The position numbers and the translations under genes are program-made. Positions 13,298-43,700 of a DNA stretch of 64,000 nucleotides are shown in pieces (position 1 is the first letter of the stretch; every line of letters begins with the position of its first letter). The notes under the pieces are model-generated. The model worked only from the letters and a program-made list of their open reading frames with translations, made no database searches and was not told the DNA's origin. The DNA is from Quercus robur. Its lineage: Eukaryota; Streptophyta; Magnoliopsida; Fagales; Fagaceae. The stretch spans positions 55,282,290-55,346,289 of the forward strand of contig NC_065541.1 of NCBI RefSeq assembly GCF_932294415.1, written 5' to 3'.

Positions 13298-16200
13298 TTA
13301 CTCATGGTATTTCTTTAAATGCTCAATGTTCCAAGGACGAGGGAGCTTTCGTCCGTCCATAGTTTCCAGATGGTAACTTCCTTGCCTAGAGTAGTGAACG
13401 ACGCGATATGGCCCTTCCCATGTAGGGCCCAGCTTCCCTTGAGTAGGGTCTTTAGTGGCTATAGTGACTTTGCGAAGGACGAGGTCCCCTATGGCCAGAC
13501 GCCTGAGTTTGACCCTCTTATTGTAATACTCGGCCATTTTCTTTTGATACTGTGTCATTCTACTGGACGCATTGTCTCTTATTTCATCCAAGCAATCCAG
13601 GTTGAACCGCAGCCCCTCGTCATTGAGTCCCTCTCTGAAAGCTCCTCGCCTGATGCTTGTTACTCCAAGTTCTATTGGGATCACTGCTTCTGAGCCGTAG
13701 GTAAGCCTGAAGGGTGTCTCTCCTGTCGGGGTTCTGGCTGTAGTCCTGTATGCCCACAAGACACTAGGCAGTTCTTCTGGCCAGGCACCTTTTGCTTCGT
13801 CCAGCTTGGTTTTGATTATCTTGAGCAACGTCCTGTTTGTTACTTCCGTCTGTCCATTTGCCTGGGGGTGTCCCGGGGATGAGAACTGATTCTTGATCCC
13901 GAGGTCCGAGCAGAACTCTCTGAAGCCTTGGCTATCGAACTGCTTCCCATTATCAGATATGATCGTCAAAGGGATCCCGAACCTGCAGATAATGTTTTTC
14001 CACACGAAGCTCCGGATCCGAGCCTCAGTGATGGTTGCTAGGGCCTCTGCTTCAACCCATTTTGTGAAATAGTCAATAGCAACTAGAAGGAATTTTACCT
14101 GACCTTTACCTTGGGGCAGAGGACCGACGATGTCGATTCCCCATTGCGCGAATGGCCATGGGGAGGATATGGTCGTCATCTTCTCTGCTGGAAGCTGTTG
14201 TACATTTCCGTACCGCTGGCATCTGTTGCATCTTCTGACGAGGTTAGCAGCATCCCCCTGCATGGTTGGCCAAAAGTACCCCGCTCTTATCACCTTGTTT
14301 ACTAGGGATCTGGGGCCGGCATGGTCGCCACAGACTCCTCCGTGTACTTCTTCTAGGATGTATTTGGCCTCGTCCTCGTTGACGCACTTCAGGTAGGGCA
14401 TAGAGAAGCCTCTTTTGTACAAGACGTCATTTAGGATCGTGAACCTGGCTGCTCTCTTTTTGACCTTTCTGGCTTCGTCAGTATTCTGGGGTAAGTGCCC
14501 GTCTCGGAGGAAGGATATTAAGGGCGTCATCCAGGTGTTTGTGCTCTGGGTGGTGAGCACTGCCACCTCTTCAATACTTGGGTATTTCTGAACTTCTATT
14601 GCCACATCTGTGCTCGTCCTTCCTGCTTCTGACGACGCTAGTTTTGACACTTCGTCAGCTCCAATATTCTGGTTTCTTGGTATCTGGACGAAATCCGCTG
14701 TGTCGAACTCGTGGGTTAGCTGCCTTGTCAGTTTAAGGTATTTCTGCATCCTTTCTTCCTTTGCCTCGTACTCTCCACTGATCTGTCCGATTACCAGCTT
14801 TGAATCACTCTGGATAAGCAAGTTTTTGGCACCAAGAGCTTTTCCGAGCCTCAAGCCCGTCAATATTCCTTCATATTCGGCTTCGTTATTGGTGGCTGGG
14901 AACTCCAGTTGAACTCCATATTTCATCACTTCTCCGTCGGGGGTGGTTATGACGACCCCTACTCCCCCCCTCTTTTGGGCTGACGAGCCATCTGTCTGTA
15001 TTATCCATTTATCAACTTCGTCGGTAGTTCCTTCTTCGTCTGGAAGAGTGAATTCAGCGATGAAGTCAGCCAGAGCTTGTGCCTTGATGGCTGCTCTTGG
15101 ATGGTACTCGATGTCAAACTGACTGAGTTCGATTGCCCATTGGACCATTCTCCCTGCTGCTTCCGGTTTGTTCATTGACTTCTTGATTGGCTGGTCCGTC
15201 ATTACAAGGATAGGATTTGACTGGAAATACGGTCTGAGCTTGCGCGAGGCTACTATAAGTGCGAACGCAATCTTTTCAATTCTTGGGTACCTGAACTCAG
15301 CTCCTTGAAAGGCCTGACTGACGTAGTACACCGGGAGTTGCTTCTTGCCTTCTTCTCTAATCAAGGCTGCGCTGACTGCCGAGGCTGATACTGCCAGGTA
15401 CAAATATAGGTTCTCCCCTCCTTTGGACGGGCTTAGGAGAGGTGGACTGCTCAGATATTGCTTCAACTCTTGGAACGCTGCTTCGCATTCGTCAGTCCAA
15501 GCAAAGGCCTGCTTGAGGGTTTTGAAAAAGGGCAAGCATTTGTCTGTGGCCCTGGAGACGAACCTGTTTAGAGCTGCTATCCTTCCCGTAAGTTTTTGTA
15601 CATCCTTGACGGTCTTGGGTGGAGCCATGTCAATGATAGCTTGTACTTTTTCTGGATTGGCTTCTATTCCTCTCTGGGACACCATGAATCCCAGGAATTT
15701 TCCCGAGGCTACCCCAAAAACACATTTGCTAGGATTCAGCTTCATCTGGTGTTTTCTCAGGGTTGCAAAAGTCTCCTCCAGGTCGTCCAGATGAGCGAGC
15801 TCTTCCTTACTCTTGACGAGCATATCGTCTACGTATACCTCCATGTTTCTGCCAATTTGTTGGTTGAACATTTTGTTTACCAACCTCTGGTATGTAGCTC
15901 CAGCGTTTTTCAACCCAAAAGGCATCACCTTGTAACAATAGAGTCCCTGGCTGGTGATGAAGGCGGTCTTCTCCTGGTCTTCTTCAGCCATCTTTATCTG
16001 GTTGTACCCTGAGAAAGCGTCCATGAACGTCAACAACTTGTGTCCAGCGGTAGAGTCCACGAGTTGGTCTATCCTTGGTAGAGGGAAGCTGTCCTTTGGG
16101 CATGCTTTATTCAGGTCGGTGAAGTCTACACACATTCTCCACTTTCCATTTGGTTTCTTTACCAGGACGACGTTGGCGAGCCACTCTGGGTAGTATACCT

Positions 16201-18469
16201 CCCGGATGAACCCAGCCGTCAAGAGTTTGGTTACCTCCTCTGCTACTGCCTGATCTCGCTCTGGAGCAAAAGTTCTTCGTCGTTGCTGAACGGGCTTCCT
16301 GTTGGGGTCCACATTCAGTCTATGCTGGATGATCTCTGGAGATATGCCTGGCATGTCCTCGTGACTCCATGCAAAGACATCAAGATTCCCTCTAAGGAAC
16401 TTTATGAGTCTTGCTCTCATCTCAGGGCTTAGCGTCGTCCCTATCCTGGTTGTCCTGTCCGCATTCCCTTCTACCAACTCCACTGCTTCCAGGATCTCCA
16501 CTCCGTCTTCTTCTTTTTCTTCTATCGTCCACGTGTGGTTCTCCTTTCTTGCCAGTACGGCCTGGTAGCACTCCCTTGCCAAGACCTGATCACCCTTCAC
16601 TTCACTCACACCATCGTCTGTTGGGAATTTCACCTTCAAACAGTAAGTTGACGTTGCCGCCTTCCACTTGTTTAGGGTAGGCCTCCCAATGATGACATTG
16701 TAGGACGAGGGGCAATCTACAACCAGGAAATCTACTTGTTTGGTCAGCTGCAACGGATAGGTCCCTGCTGTCACCGTCAGAGTCACTATACCCCTGGGGT
16801 AGACCCTGTCTCCACTGAAACTGACAAGCGGAGAGTCAAAAGGACGGAGCCTTTTTGGATCTAACTTCAACTGCTGGAAGGCTGGGAGGTAGATGATATC
16901 CGCTGAGCTTCCGTTATCAACAAGGATCCTTCTGGTATTGAACCCTTCTATATTCAGCACTATGACCAGGGGATCGTTGTGAGGCTGTTTCACTCCCCTG
17001 GCGTCTCCTTCATTAAAGGACATATCTTGGTATGTTCGTCGGTACTTGGACGGAGGAATGGTGTGGACGCTGTTTACCTGTCTGTGGTATGCTTTTCTAA
17101 GCGATCTGAATGACCCTCCTGAGAATGGTCCTCCCGTGATCGTGTTTATCTCCCCGATCACTTTGCGTGGAGGTTGGGACGTATGGTCGTCATCCCGAGT
17201 GAAGGATTCATTTTGGGTCCTGTTGTCGTCTCTGAACTTGCTATATTCTCCTTTCCTTACAAATTTCTGCAACTTTCCTTTCCGTATTAACTCCTCTATT
17301 TGTTCCTTCAGGTCTCTGCAATCTTCTGTGTTGTGGCCGTGGTCTCTGTGGAACCGGCAATACTTGTTCTTGTCACGTACGTTGGGGGACGAGTGTAATG
17401 GCCTGGGCCATTTGAGATAATGCTCGTCCTTGATCTGCGTGAAAATCTTGTCAACAGGCATAACCAATGGAGTAAATTTTACCTGACGAGGATTTTTTTC
17501 ATCTCTCCTTCTATTCCCGTCACTGTTCCGACGATCTGGTCTGTCTCTCTTTTGCCCTCTGCGGTCGTCTTCCCTTTTGGACTTGTCTCCTAGCCTCTCG
17601 GTATCTTTTATGGCAGCTAGAGCGTCTTCCGCGTTCATGTATTTTTGGGCCTTCAGGAGCATCTCAGCCATTGTCTTCGGGGGGTTTTTGGCAAGAGAGG
17701 CTACAAGGTCTCTGGATTTCAACCCTGCCTTGAAGGTCGTCAGTTGCACCTTGTCATCAGCTTCGTCCACCTCCAGAGTTTCCCGGGTGAATCGCTTGAC
17801 ATATGACCTCAGAGTCTCCTTCTCTCCCTGTCTTATGGTGAGTAAGTAATCTACTGGTCTCCTTGGGCGTTGTCCCCCTATGAAGTGACGCAGGAAAGCA
17901 CTACTTAGCTGATCGAAGTTGTCTATGGACGAGTTTGGCAACTTAGTAAACCATTCTCTTGCTGCTCCTTTGAGAGTCGTAGGGAAGGAACGGCATAATA
18001 TCTCAGGTGGTTGTTGAAGGCCCAGAGTCGTCTTAAAGGTATTAAGATGATCCTGAGGGTCCTTGAGTCCGTCGAATGGTTCTAATTGAGGCAGGCGAAA
18101 CTTTGACGGCACGGGGCGATCAAGTACTGCTGCAGTGAAGGGCGAATCTGTAGCCCTTACCATCTTGTCTACACTCCGGTCTGTCTTTTCCTTGATAGCG
18201 CTCCTTAGTTCGTCCATCTCTTTCCTCATTTCCCGAAGAAGATCTGAGTTTTGTTCGTCCGGAGTAGTTGGTCTCCGGGGGGTTTCCCTCTGTTGGCTAT
18301 CCCCCTCTCCCTCCGTGTTACCCTTGGACCGGTTTTCTTCCTGTTGAGCTTGTTGAACCTGCTGGAGCCGCAGCTTCATTTCCTGGTTCTGCCTGGTGAG
18401 TTCCTCAATGGTGGCTGCCAGGGCTTGAACTTGTTGGGCCAAGGCCGTTGAATCTGGGTTGGATTCCAT
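13298..18469 (-). CDS. Gag-Pol polyprotein of the Tat element (1,723 aa)
   Basis: One long open frame. Domains in order: an N-terminal coiled-coil/Gln-rich leader; a retrotransposon gag domain (around REWFTKLP); a basic region and a Cys/His cluster ([14 protein letters not shown]); an aspartic protease ([10 protein letters not shown]); a reverse transcriptase (active-site YVDD); a first RNase H; a second, archaeal-type RNase H (IIQTDGSS); and an integrase with its HHCC zinc region (CNRCQRYG) and catalytic core ([16 protein letters not shown]). Single-frame gag-pol plus dual RNase H supports Tat. The frame looks whole. It would act in reverse transcription and integration of the element's own RNA. 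Confidence 0.93.
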
Positions 18470-30183: not shown

Positions 30184-30930
30184 ATGTCTTGTTGGTCTGC
30201 TGATTATGCCACAAAAGCCTATCTCCGCACCCTAAAGATGGTGAGAAAGCAAACTATAATGATATTATCTCTCTTTCTAAATCTTTTTGTTAAAATTTGT
30301 TTTCTATCTTTTTATATGACCAAGTTTTTTGTGTTATTTTTATAGGGAACAAGAGGTAAGGAGCCTGATGTGGCCGAATTCATATCTGCCCTTGCTGCTG
30401 GCAACAATGCCAAACTCATGGTGATTGTATGTGCTAGCATTGCTGGATCAACCACTCTAGCGTTAGTAGCAGCAGCTTATCAAACAGGTGGCCATGTTGT
30501 ATGCATTTTGAGCAAGCTTGATGAATTGCATGCTTCAAAGAAAGCTCTAGGCTCCTATGCAAACAGGGTCGAGTTTGTCATAGGAGATGCATGTACCCTT
30601 TTGTTAGATGATTATAAAGAAGCAGATTTTGTGCTTATTGATTGTGAAATCAGTGATCATAAGGGGGTGTTCTTAGCAGCACAAAAGGGTTTAAAGCATG
30701 AGAAGAAGGCACTTATAGTAGGGTACAATGCTCTCCACAAGGGATCTTATTGGTGGTCTGAATTGAAGACACATTTTTTGCCCATTGGAGAGGGGCTTTT
30801 GGTGACTAGAATGGTTACTAATGGAGGCCAGAAAAGAAGCCGTTGGGTGGTTGCAGTAGATAAGTGTACTGGTGAGGAACATGTTTTCAGGGTCACTAAT
30901 TCCCCACCAAGGAAACAAATTGAAGCTTAA
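30184..30930 (+). CDS. DUF1442 family protein (plant methyltransferase-like), 2 exons
   Basis: Exons 30184-30240 and 30346-30930, joined by a GT-AG intron, encode 213 residues. The start MSCWSADYATKAYL is typical of the family (a W-S-x-E/D-x-A-x-x-A-Y-L motif). The rest fits a Rossmann-like fold: FISALAAGNNAKLM, then a hydrophobic strand and VCILSKLDEL, an acidic strand end in DFVLIDCE, and a C-terminal basic/aromatic segment (SRWVVAVDKCTGEEHVFRV). DUF1442 proteins are distant SAM-methyltransferase relatives of unproven activity. A second member sits 4.9 kb away in opposite orientation (35100-35892), only moderately similar, so any tandem origin is old. The gene looks intact. Confidence 0.85.
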
Positions 30931-35099: not shown

Positions 35100-35892
35100 T
35101 CATCTCCGAAACATGTGCTCCTCACCGGACCGTGCATCGATATGCCTGATCCAACGGCTATGATGAGCCTTCCTCCCACTCCCACCAATAGTAGTACTCC
35201 CTACATGAGCAATATCCAACCCTTTCTCCACAGGCAAAAACACTGTCCTCACCACACGTGCCCCTCTCTCAAGCAACCCATGCCATCGAAACCCCGAAAC
35301 CGCGTTTCCATCTCTCGTCTTCGAATTCTTGCATGCCAAAACCGCGCCTCTCTGACCCAGTTTCGCAAACCTCAGCACCCTGTCGAAATCTCCACGCTTG
35401 CAATCCACCACCAGAAAATCCACACCCACCAGCCCAGCCATCTCCACCTCGGCCTCACCCACCACCACCTCCGGCGGCGGCGCCACTTCATCGTGTTCTT
35501 TCATGGCGTTCATGTACTTTTGTCTTGACTGCTCGTCAGGGACTACGCATACGTACCGCCCGCGCGTGTGGCGGGCTGCGATGGCCAGCCCTATGCTTGT
35601 CACGATTGGAGCGCCGTGGAACCAGGCTTGGACTATTAGCTTTGCGTTCCAACCGGCTGCCATGCTGGAGAGGAGCTCGGCTATACTGGATTCTTTGAAG
35701 CTCTTACACTGCGTAAAAAATAAAAATATAGAAACAATCATAGTTAGTATAGTTTTTTGAGAAAGTTTGAAATAGAATAGTAGGAAAATATATACACAGG
35801 TGGGTTCAATTTTGGATTCAGAGTATGCTTACAGATTTAACAGTGTCTATGTAAGCTTCTAAAGCAGTTTCTGGGGACCATACGAGCTTCAT
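35100..35892 (-). CDS. DUF1442 family protein (plant methyltransferase-like), 2 exons
   Basis: Exon 1 is 35892-35833 (MKLVWSPETALEAYIDTVKS) and exon 2 is 35708-35100, joined by a GT-AG intron; 222 residues. It shares the family layout with the gene at 30184: the W-S-P-E-x-A start, SSMAAGWNAKLIV, a glycine/alanine-containing strand, [12 protein letters not shown], then HHSRWIRHIDARSGEEHMF at the C-terminus. The coding sequence is noticeably GC-richer than its surroundings, as is common for this subfamily. It faces the other DUF1442 gene (convergent). No catalytic role is proven for the family. The gene looks intact. Confidence 0.87.
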
Positions 35893-38935: not shown

Positions 38936-39322
38936 TTCAGGTCAAGTCCAGCTTCTCTCAACATAAAGCTAGACTTCCTCATCGATGGACTTAAAGGAAC
39001 ACTCCGATGTGCATATTCCAGTATGCATAATTATTACCATCCAAGTGCAGCAAGAAATCTTAAAATTATTGAAAAAGGAACTTCTTTTGACCCCTATTTA
39101 TATTATGCAGCGGATTACCAAATTATATTAGTCAAACAATTATGTAAATCTAATTAGAATAGGGTAATTACCATGAGCATTAAATATCACAACATGATAA
39201 GTAATAAAAAGTAAAGCAATCAACACAATATATGGTAATGAAATGGAAGATCGAGGGATGTATTTAAAGAAAAACCCATTGAAAGGGTTCCTTAACCCCA
39301 AGAGGGAATTCATTAAATAGAA

Positions 39323-40788
39323 GGCGAAAAACACATTTTAGTCTCTACATTTTCAAGCGATTCTCATTTTAGTCCCTACATTTTATTTTTACTGCTTTTA
39401 GTCCCTATCTTGAAAAACGCTTCTCGTTTTGGTCCCTGCCGTTACATCAGAGACGGAAAATGTACACGTGGCAAACGGCAGAATTAAAAAATATTAAAAA
39501 TATTTTATTTTATTTTATTTTATTTTATTTTAAAATAAAATAAAATTTTAGTTATCAATAATTTTAAAATAAAAATATTAAAAATTTTAGTTAAAAATAT
39601 TTGTTCTTCATGTTCTTCCCCCAAGAACATGATTGCCCAGAAATTTTAGTTAACAACGATCCGAAAAAAAAGAAAAGAAAAAAAAGAAGAACAACTGACA
39701 ACACCATTAGCCAAATGCATATCAATATTGCTCAACGAAAAAAAAAATTAGCTTCCAAAATCCACACCATAAACCCCCAAATCACTTCACACTAAACCAT
39801 GAACACAAAAAATTCCAGAAACCCAATTCATTTGAATGACACAAGCCTTCTATATCACCCACCCACCAAACTCAAAAACCCAATTTCCTTTTGGTTTACT
39901 GACATTTCCTGAGCTTTCTCGGCAACCAAACACCCAATAATGAACATAAAGAAAAATGAAAGAAAACCCACAAAAGAAAATTCGAAGGGGAATTTGATGA
40001 AAGCTTAAGAACCTTGAAGAATTTGCCAGAGTAGTGACGGATATGAAATCTCTTCCATGTCGTTGAATCTTCTTCTTCTGCCATTGTTGCTCTTGTTGTT
40101 GTTTGTGAAGAGGGAATTGTTGAAGATTCGTAAGGGAGCAAGTGGTAGCGAAATGATGGGTCGTTTTCGACCTCTGCTCTAAGTTCATCCCATTCGAAGT
40201 CCTTGGAGAAGTACTCTGCCTCTGCTGCCTCCATTTTTTTTTTCTACTTCTCCCCCTGTTTTTCAGAAAGCTACCCCTTTTTATATTCTCATTAAGTTAG
40301 TATTATTTAGTTTAAAATTTTATTTTTCCAAAAATATAAATTAAGGACAAATGTTTGAAATTTTTTTTCGGATCGTTGTTAGTTGATTATGTTAGAGTAT
40401 CTGAGTTTGATCATGGTTTTGTATATGTTTTTGCTTGTTTGGATACTAAGAAAATTAAATAAAAGAGAAAAAAAATCTTGAATTTTTGGGCAATCATGTT
40501 CTTGGGGGAAGAACACAAAGAACAAATATTTTTAACTAAAATTTTTAATATTTTTATTTTAAAATTATTGGTAACTAAAATTTTATTTTATTTTAAAATA
40601 AAATAAAATATTTTTAATATTTTTTAATTCTGCCGTTTGCCACGTGTATATTTTCTGTCTCTGATGTAATGGTAGGGACCAAAACGATAAGCATTTTTCA
40701 AGATAGGGAATAAAAACGGTAAAAATAAAATGTAAGGACTAAAATGAGAATCACTTAAAAATGTAAGGATTAAAATGTGTTTTTCGCC
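39323..40788. mobile_element. Pack-MULE (Mutator-like, 1,466 bp) carrying a host gene fragment
   Basis: Long terminal inverted repeats of about 310-320 bp: left 39323-39645, right 40480-40788, both beginning GGCGAAAAACACATTTTA from the outside. They show about 90-95% match by eye, including the shared TCTGATGTAA/TTACATCAGA and CACGTG motifs. An exact 9-bp target duplication TAAATAGAA flanks it (39314-39322 and 40789-40797), the hallmark of Mutator-like elements. The interior, about 39650-40480, has no transposase but holds a captured exon of a tRNA methyltransferase-like gene on the minus strand. Confidence 0.9.
40013..40234 (-). pseudogene. Captured first exon of a METTL2/6/8-like (tRNA m3C) methyltransferase
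   Basis: A 74-codon open stretch from an ATG at 40234 to an AAG|GTTCTT splice donor at 40013/40012. The N-terminus (EAEYFSKDFEWDELRAEVE) and the end (TWKRFHIRHYSGKFFK) match what I recall as the conserved N-terminal region of plant METTL2/6/8-type proteins, where W-x-x-F-H-x-R-H-x-x-G-K-F-F-K precedes the SAM-binding domain. Past the donor the sequence reads like intron DNA, and upstream of the ATG is a pyrimidine-rich stretch that may be the parent's 5' leader. So genomic DNA, not cDNA, was captured. The methyltransferase domain is absent. It is enclosed in the Pack-MULE; whether it is transcribed is unknown. Confidence 0.75.
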
Positions 40789-43700
40789 TAAATAGAATGA
40801 AAGTTAACCATCTAGAATAGACCCTTGTTACTAAACTTTACCCTGTAGAAAATTTATTGACATGGCCCCACTATATCAGCTTCAAGCTGCTTTGACTTTT
40901 CTATTTTGAAAACATTCAACAAACTACGTTCATCACTTTAAGGACCACCCTGAAGATTTTTGCATTCCTGCAATAATTTTGGAATGGCTCTATGATTTCA
41001 GCTCTAATCCACTCCATGTCAACTAAAACACCGTATTAATTCTTCTTTTAGCCTTTTGAACTCATGGGTTGGTTGATTTTGGGGTTTAGTTTTTCTTTAT
41101 TCAGTGTACGACAATCCTCCAAGAACACTTATTAAGTTGACAACCGACTTATTTGAAACATGTTAGAATCAAGTTTTTTGATTCTCAATCAAGCAAGCAG
41201 CCGTCGAGAAGTGTAGAGACCCTTGGTTTTAATAGAGCGAGTTGCTATATATGAAAGTCTGACGAAACCAATGCTTCCATCCTTCAAGGGGCAATCGAAA
41301 TTATAGATTTCTTTTCTTCTTTGAGTTGTTTTTTAGACACTTGATCATGAACTTATGATGATGCACTACAAACTCAATCGAGTTACAATATCATGAAATT
41401 TGTCAACTTAAAACCTAATTATATATAAATATTTTTTTGTTGAAATTTCTTATGCATTACATACTACAGTGTTGGCAGATACACATGGGATGCTCCTGTA
41501 CGGCTGTACGTACACATGATTTGTGTGAGATTAATTTCATGACTTTTTAATTTTTTCTTTTTCTTTTTCTTTTTCTTTTTCTTTTTATGAATATGAAATC
41601 ATGAGTCCGTACAAAGGTGGCTTTGAATTTTATTTAATCATACAGATGAACCGGCGTGCATGTTCATCCCCGGTTCCCGCTGTTTTATTCTTTCGTTGTC
41701 CGCAAGTTGCACCATATAAAAAATTGATTATTTTAAAGCTGTAGTGAACAGGTCAATGAGAGTGACCAAGCAGAGGTTAGTACGAACTGCCAACTGCTAG
41801 CTCAATCTTCAGTTCTTTACCAACCATAGAATAAAGTATCGCTTTGCACTTGTTTTCTTGAGCTGAAGTAACCAAAAAAAAAAAAAAATGATTTTAACTT
41901 TGCTCTTCAGAAAACCAAAATAATTCGTCTGCTTCATTTTAAAATTACAGTAGTAGATAATCTGATAATGCACAATGAACTCAAGGATTCAAAATTTAAG
42001 GGTGTGGAAAATAAAAAGTTCCAGTTCATGAAAAGTTTTAAGAGTTTTCTTGAATGTAAAACTAAAAGTGAAAAACCGAAGGACCATTCCTGCTCCTGCC
42101 TTTTAAATTTTTCGATATTAAAGTCAATGAAAATATCTTAAAGTTGGGTCTATACGAAGTAGGTGTAAAAGTGTTGCATAATTTGTTGTATGTGATTTTA
42201 AATTAGATAAGTCACCGGCTCTCATTGCCAGTACAGCCCGTACCTTGAATTATTCAACTAGTTAATACTTAAGCCTCCAAAAAGTTAAGAAGAAAACAAC
42301 AACCTTTCCACCTTTTATATATCCATTTTTTTATGTTAAAGCATGTTGATTAGGTTGATATTTATACAGATGTGATATGAATCAAGATTGTTATATTTCT
42401 ATTTGGATAATGACGCTTTTTTTGTTGTATTTGTAGTCATTATATACAAAGGTCAATGTCATGTACACACTACGTAGTCATTAATTTTTAGTATACTAAA
42501 AATTAAGCAATGATCTCACTTCATATATACTACTAAATAATATGGACGGTTGCACATAATCTACAACATGATTTAACAATATCTTCCTTTCTGCAAATTG
42601 TTTCTAAAATAATCTAGTTTTAGGAATGATAGTATATAATTAAGCAACCATGACGAAAATGATTTTGAAAAGTGTGTTAGCAGGGTTCTTTTTAAGACTA
42701 TGCTTATCTTAACATAGGTTGTTTTTATAAGGAAACAAGTTGTAATTAAGATTATAAGTTTCATAGGGGACGGATCATGAACATGACTTCTCCTAAGTCA
42801 AAACCAATCCAGTTGCTATAAAGTATAGAATGGTGTCCTTAGACCCAAAGAAATTTCTTAAAATAAAAATAGCTAGAATGGCGCTAATGAAAAATTTGGT
42901 GATGCATTTGATAAAATTGTCGACACTTTAAGACTTTTTAAGTCCATTTAACAAGCACCATTTTCGCGTGAGGTTGAGGGTTTCAATATTTTTCTGCCAG
43001 GATTGGTCTGGATAACCACTAAACTTTTGACATGATCTGATTTTTTTGCCTTTTCTTTTTCTAATTTCGATGTTAATAGTAAAGAATAAGTTATAATAGT
43101 TCATGACTTCATGGAACCCCTGCGACTTGCAAGGCGGCTTATAATAGTTCTAATGATGTTATAAGTTACAAGTTATAACCAATAACTGAGTCTACCAAAG
43201 CTGCTGCTTAGCTCTTATCATGAATAATTAATAAAAGATGAGGAAAAAATTAAAGAAAGTGAGAAAAACGTACGAGAAGATATCTCCTAATTGTTTATAT
43301 GTGTATAAAACAAAAGTATGACACCAACCGATAAGGGCTTCAACCATCAAACCCCAAATTTTTATATTTGAATACATTTGTTTTATACCTACTCTTTTGT
43401 TTTTAGTGTTCCTAACAGACTAGGAAGATGCCAATATTTGGATTGAGTTGGTCATTTTCAAAATCTATCTGAGAACAAAGACCATGACAAGCATTATAAC
43501 ACATAAATCTTGTAGATTCATCTTATTTGATTGGAAAGAGTTTTATTAATTGTTTATTAAAATTATTTAAAAGTTAAAATATTTACAAATAGAAAACATG
43601 TTTTTAATTGAGTTTTATTTACTTGAAGCATAGTACCTATCTAAAATAAGCATGTAGTAATTTAAATTTAAAAAAAAAAAAAAAAATTGTTGCTCCAAAA

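What the first reader, a model, noticed from the sequence alone, without database searches (positions are those of the whole stretch)
39323..40788. Pack-MULE that captured the first exon of a METTL2/6/8-like methyltransferase gene
The element has every mark of a Mutator-like transposon: inverted ends of about 310-320 bp and an exact 9-bp duplication TAAATAGAA. Its cargo is a 74-codon exon, still open, ending at a splice donor with intron-like sequence beyond and a possible 5' leader upstream. An intact start codon plus a possible parental promoter could make a short chimaeric transcript, or an antisense or small-RNA source acting on the parent gene.
Basis: partly seen in the sequence, partly recalled or inferred. 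Interest (0 to 1): 0.72.

Follow-up and report, generated by a model that had tools for sequence, protein, structure and literature searches.

The report
Transposon carrying a captured first exon
A plant jumping gene copied the promoter-side end and first exon of a tRNA-methyltransferase-like gene from another place in the same genome and then spread it to at least six sites; it is a clean example of a known kind of element, with no evidence yet that the copied exon does anything.

Summary
At 39323-40788 lies a 1466-bp element with long inverted ends, an exact 9-bp target duplication and, on the minus strand, an open 74-codon exon ending at a splice donor. The host assembly (786 Mb) settles the interpretation. 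The parent gene is on another contig (C3, ATG 25529048). A 480-bp stretch of it (126 bp upstream of the ATG, exon 1, start of intron 1) was copied into the element at window 39880-40362 (95.8% identity). The parent's further exons match human METTL6 (E 5.7e-31). At least six copies exist, each with its own exact 9-bp duplication and the same parent breakpoints (to within 2 bp): one capture, then repeated transposition. The exon is open in five of the six. Two corrections: the inner 208 bp beside the left end (39672-39879) is not METTL intron but an older mobile segment; and the full end is about 428 bp, of which the left arm here lost about 99 nt. Four sister elements with the same ends and segment carry a PP2A-catalytic-subunit start instead, so one lineage has held different cargo. 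dN/dS shows no clear selection; expression and small RNAs are untested. New member of a known kind (Pack-MULE).

The parts
39314..39322 (.). left copy of the 9-bp target site duplication TAAATAGAA
   Evidence: exact match to 40789-40797
39323..39671 (+). left terminal inverted repeat, shortened: about 99 nt present in the right arm are missing after 39645
   Evidence: TIR alignment; of the six METTL-carrying copies only the C1:32018055 copy keeps the long left arm; L017, L018 and L019 show the long form at both ends and L020 at its left end
39672..39879 (-). 208-bp older mobile segment shared with PP2A-type sister elements; not from the METTL gene
   Evidence: 14 matches in the genome, 10 of them in the METTL- and PP2A-type elements; no match in the parent region
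39880..40362 (-). captured piece of the METTL6-like parent gene (parent C3:25529174 down to 25528695)
   Evidence: 476 aligned bases, 95.8% identity, breakpoints shared by six copies to within 2 bp
39880..40012 (-). start of parent intron 1, with donor GT at 40012-40011
   Evidence: alignment to parent; parent exon 2 follows TATGCAG| and continues the frame
40013..40234 (-). captured exon 1, 74 codons, open; reads through into the intron to a stop at 39896-39898 if not spliced
   Evidence: translation; 89% identical to parent exon 1
40235..40362 (-). captured upstream stretch of the parent, with TATAAAAA at 40285-40278
40361..40788 (+). right terminal inverted repeat, full 428-bp form; its inner border overlaps the capture border in a run of A
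40789..40797 (.). right copy of the 9-bp target site duplication

Best explanation
This is a non-autonomous Mutator-like element (Pack-MULE). Shown: it holds a 480-bp DNA copy of the 5-prime end of a METTL6-like gene (upstream stretch, exon 1, start of intron 1); six copies share the capture breakpoints and each has its own 9-bp target duplication. Inferred: the capture happened once, by copying genomic DNA (an intron start is included, so not from a spliced mRNA) into the interior of an older element whose ends and 208-bp inner segment were already mobile; the element was then moved by a transposase supplied elsewhere. Inferred and untested: in the plant it most likely behaves as a mostly silenced passenger. 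It may be transcribed at a low level from the carried promoter or the ends, giving a truncated peptide of up to 112 aa or, because of the long inverted ends, small RNAs.
For: Inverted ends and exact 9-bp duplication. Six METTL-carrying copies with six different exact 9-bp duplications: this one, the other five. Breakpoints at the parent agree in all six to within 2 bp. Parent without these ends at C3; its joined exons match METTL6 in PDB (E 5.7e-31) and Methyltransf_25 (E 2.7e-9). Protein search of the whole assembly: 8 matches, which are the parent and the six copies, one copy split in two. Passenger status: dN/dS against the parent 0.72 to 1.58 in the five in-frame copies, Fisher tests on three chosen of 15 pairs p 0.07 to 0.50; 17 of 19 end mismatches are transitions, as decay of methylated cytosines would give; the single-strand fold of the element pairs its two ends.
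Against: No transposase with these ends was looked for, so mobilisation from elsewhere is inferred. Five of six copies keep the exon open, and six of the ten between-copy pairs give dN/dS 0.34 to 0.44, which would fit some constraint; the counts are too small to decide. No expression or methylation data.
Confidence: 0.95

Rival explanations
1. The copy is a functional chimaeric gene or trans-regulator: a short protein or small RNAs from it act on the METTL6-like parent.
For: Carried upstream stretch with a TATA-like box (TATAAAA in all six copies against CATAAAAAA in the parent), open exon in five of six copies, 94.5-96.0% identity to the parent over 480 bp, long inverted ends able to form a hairpin; dN/dS 0.34 to 0.44 in six of ten between-copy pairs. 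Literature: passages of PMC8277862 and PMC4858842 report transcription and small RNAs from some Pack-MULEs.
Against: The exon ends before the methyltransferase domain: the Methyltransf_25 match starts at residue 95 of the joined parent model, and the Pfam domain at 79 and 87 in the two Arabidopsis relatives (PMC5740945 passage). dN/dS against the parent is not clearly below 1. One copy is frameshifted.
Confidence: 0.08
2. The exon resemblance is chance and the element is an ordinary MULE without a gene fragment.
For: Before the host genome could be searched: no Pfam match above cut-off and no PDB match for the exon, a METTL6 alignment no better than shuffles (740 of 2000), and 83 of 51,458 window 16-mers scoring as high.
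Against: The parent locus is found at 95.8% identity with a METTL6-like gene downstream.
Confidence: 0.01
3. The element is not Mutator-like but belongs to another superfamily with 8- to 9-bp duplications (hAT, Merlin or P type; their marks are recalled, not looked up).
For: No transposase of this family was identified here.
Against: Ends of 349 and 428 bp and exact 9-bp duplications in six of six METTL-type copies match the stated marks of MULEs, 9-11 bp duplications and ends of 100-500 bp (PMC3310237, introduction).
Confidence: 0.03

Closest known systems
Pack-MULEs of plants (PMC3310237, abstract and introduction; PMC4858842, passages)
   Same: Non-autonomous, long ends, 9-bp duplications, a gene fragment between the ends, several copies, some lineages with fragments of more than one gene.
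   Different: Parent and cargo are particular to this genome. The inner 208-bp segment is itself an older mobile piece, and sister elements carry the start of a different gene beside it.
Pack-TYPE elements that acquire or merge cargo (PMC8903248, abstract and sections 9 and 10)
   Same: Newer cargo lies inside, ends are conserved, and subgroups of one family differ by the captured gene.
   Different: Those sections show examples for PIF and Mariner and mention CACTA and hAT; here the ends are Mutator-like, and the METTL cargo stands where the sisters have PP2A cargo.

Membership tests
Mutator-like element (MULE) | 9-11 bp target site duplication | tested here: met
   Exact 9 bp in six of six METTL-type copies. 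At the assumed ends of the four PP2A-type copies: one exact, one 8 of 9, one 7 of 9, one 2 of 9 (the last cut short at its right end).
Mutator-like element (MULE) | long terminal inverted repeats (100-500 bp) | tested here: met
   349 bp (shortened) and 428 bp.
Mutator-like element (MULE) | mobilised by a MURA-type transposase | not tested
   No transposase search of the host was made; 7 of the 31 window frames of 110 aa or more were scanned with Pfam, plus the cargo frame.
Pack-MULE | carries a fragment of a host gene, no transposase | tested here: met
   480 bp of the METTL6-like gene; no frame over 112 aa in the element.
Pack-MULE | parent copy not itself between such ends | tested here: met
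   In 14 kb around the parent only the cargo and one 23-bp AT-rich place match the element.
tRNA m3C methyltransferase (METTL2/6/8, TRM140) | SAM-dependent methyltransferase domain | tested here: not met
   Absent from the captured exon; present in the joined parent model. The element carries a fragment only.

The most novel reading that the evidence does not exclude
One MULE lineage acts as a first-exon exchanger: captures of promoter side, start codon and first exon (PP2A catalytic subunit in one branch, METTL6-like in the other) stand in the same orientation in front of the same mobile segment, so that the element works as a portable promoter and start exon that could be spliced onto genes downstream of new insertions.
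Probability: 0.12. Interest if true: 0.6.

Novelty: new member of a known kind. Interest (0 to 1): 0.33.

Why it matters
It is a complete case: parent, capture breakpoints, six insertions with their own target duplications, and a sister branch with a different captured gene start in the same place. That makes it a usable test case for how Pack-MULEs take up and replace cargo. For the biology of the methyltransferase it matters only if the copies are expressed.

Tried and rejected
Sequence-only proof of the METTL relation failed before the host genome could be searched: for the exon Pfam gave only a match below cut-off to an unrelated family and PDB gave none; the METTL6 alignment was not better than shuffles (740 of 2000); the tail test was modest (309 of 20,000 tail shuffles, 83 of 51,458 window 16-mers); and the codon score did not single out the reading frame (the three reverse frames scored higher).

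Viral and prokaryote collections: the exon gave no relatives, two end patterns gave none, and the METTL6 fragment gave one locus in viral contigs, L001, which I judged a chance match after reading its DNA, and none in genome contigs. Rfam and tRNA scans of the window were empty.

The 99-nt extra piece in the right arm first looked like an insertion; the other copies show it to be part of the full end, lost from the left arm here. A short motif shared by that piece and the captured intron was not significant by shuffles (200 of 1000) and is not used. A splice acceptor inside the element was sought; one candidate met the filter (first base 39791), without support. Which cargo came first, PP2A or METTL, is not resolved: the end tree separates the two types (100/99), the 208-bp segment tree does not, and its bootstrap had not settled. 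The PP2A parent gene was not found because the genome search did not complete.

Literature: the listings seen (each the top 7 to 20 of the papers found) show no title naming a Pack-MULE with METTL or PP2A cargo, and (recalled protein motifs) found 0 papers. This is no proof of absence in print. Three papers asked for by id were not held.

Full report
WHAT IS THERE. The element spans 39323-40788 (1466 bp). It begins GGCGAAAAACAC and ends with its inverse, and is flanked by TAAATAGAA on both sides. The two ends align over 308 columns with 19 mismatches, 17 of them transitions, and 15 gap columns. Further in, a perfect 21-bp inverted pair (39651-39671 and 40361-40381) marks the inner border of the ends. 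In the right arm 99 nt lie between these parts that are missing from the left arm. The terminal sequence was not seen elsewhere in the window.

CARGO. On the minus strand the cargo reads: upstream stretch with TATAAAAA 51 bp before the start codon, ATG at 40234, 74 open codons to 40013, AAG|GT, then T-rich sequence (T 21% in the exon; 41% in the 133 bp of captured intron and 48% in the 208-bp segment behind it). Without splicing the frame stays open for 112 codons; the longest ATG frame in shuffles of the cargo reached that in 30 of 2000, and a second overlapping frame is also 112 codons long.

THE HOST GENOME DECIDES. The window is C37:55282290-55346289 of an assembly of 785,749,727 bases in 42 contigs. 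The element gave 138 matching stretches; 40 of 2291 first-look candidates were scored, so copy counts are lower bounds. I took 57 positions by hand from that list; clustered within 3 kb they make 35 places with such ends. METTL-type copies are at C2:65011201, C3:26227191, C3:3226053, C1:12983672 and C1:32018055, besides this one. Each of those five has an exact 9-bp duplication of its own, as has this one.

PARENT. A match without the ends lies at C3:25528695-25529174. It covers window 39880-40362: 476 aligned bases at 95.8% identity, 11 gap positions; the other five copies match the same stretch at 94.5-96.0%, with the same breakpoints to within 2 bp. Parent exon 1 is 89% identical to the captured exon in protein. 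Its next exon begins after TATGCAG| and continues the frame as ERRYLLKEFPEL. A partial protein that I joined from the parent's exons matches human METTL6 structures (E 5.7e-31) and Methyltransf_25 (E 2.7e-9, residues 95-187). The matched chains are named tRNA N(3)-methylcytidine methyltransferase METTL6. A protein search of the whole assembly with the captured exon gave 8 matches: the parent and the six copies, one copy split in two.

WHAT THIS MEANS FOR THE EXON. The exon lies wholly before the catalytic domain, so it cannot by itself make a methyltransferase. Five of six copies have the exon open; the C1:32018055 copy has an 11-bp duplication that shifts the frame. Against the parent dN/dS is 0.72 for this copy and 1.05, 1.57, 1.13 and 1.58 for the other four in-frame copies. 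Among the ten pairs of copies six give 0.34 to 0.44, three give 0.76 to 1.02 and one is undefined. Fisher tests on three chosen of the 15 pairs gave p 0.50, 0.11 and 0.07. This shows no clear selection either way.

OLDER PARTS. The 208 bp at 39672-39879 are absent from the parent region. They have 14 matches in the assembly: six METTL-type copies, four elements with the same ends (C1:21269939, C35:15405956, C5:85298262, C37:46369108) and four more distant places. Those four elements carry, in place of the METTL piece and in the same orientation, the start of a PP2A catalytic subunit: the L017 peptide of 51 residues matches PP2A chains in PDB (best E 8.6e-10), and tblastn finds it in all four, open over the matched part in L017, L019 and L018 (there only residues 1-37) and with two stops in L020; none of the five other METTL-type copies examined has it. 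A tree of the ends puts the METTL-type and PP2A-type copies on two sides of a branch (support 100/99); a tree of the 208-bp segment does not separate them. So the cargo differs between two branches of one lineage, and the order of events is open. The C1:32018055 copy (L016) keeps the long form of the left end, and L017-L019 have it at both ends, which shows that the short left arm of the window's copy is a loss.

COMPARISON WITH PRINT. The introduction of PMC3310237 gives 9-11 bp duplications and ends of 100-500 bp as marks of MULEs, and describes Pack-MULEs as non-autonomous MULEs with genes or gene fragments; both fit. Passages of PMC8277862 and PMC4858842 report transcription and small RNAs from some Pack-MULEs and functional constraint in only a small proportion. 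Sections 9 and 10 of PMC8903248 report families whose members differ in captured genes. The case here is thus ordinary in kind; its merit is that parent, breakpoints, copies and an alternative cargo are all in view.

MECHANISM. Shown: a DNA-level copy of a gene's 5-prime end inside an element with long inverted ends, and six insertions. Inferred: one capture, copying of genomic DNA, mobilisation by a transposase from elsewhere, silencing in the plant. Not testable here: transcripts, small RNAs, effect on the parent.

Noticed in passing
L017, L018, L019, L020 (C1:21269939-21271580, C35:15405956-15407598, C5:85298262-85299921, C37:46369108-46370600): Sister elements with the same ends carry the start of a PP2A catalytic subunit where the METTL exon stands in the window's element.
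   Followed up: partly
C3:34334115-34334321 (L029), C41:19054750 (L030), C1:16825223 (L031): The 208-bp inner segment, whole or in part, also occurs outside these ten elements; L030 and L031 have end-like sequence about 70-73% similar nearby, and L029 sits between frames that look like a beta-xylosidase gene (name recalled, not searched).
   Followed up: partly
39323-39645 against 40481-40788: Of 17 transitions between the ends, 13 have C/G on the left and T/A on the right, 4 the reverse (two-sided p 0.049): the right arm may have decayed faster.
   Followed up: no
39336-39440: The end holds four TTTAGTCCCT-like words spaced 31, 29 and 31 bp, of the kind that could be iterated protein-binding sites.
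   Followed up: no
30370-30930 and 35100-35741: Two frames of the DUF1442 family in opposite orientation (E 3.3e-16 and 5.2e-77).
   Followed up: no
13298-18469: A 1723-aa open frame with gag, reverse transcriptase, RNase H and integrase domains, by their order a Ty3/gypsy-type retrotransposon (order rule recalled).
   Followed up: no
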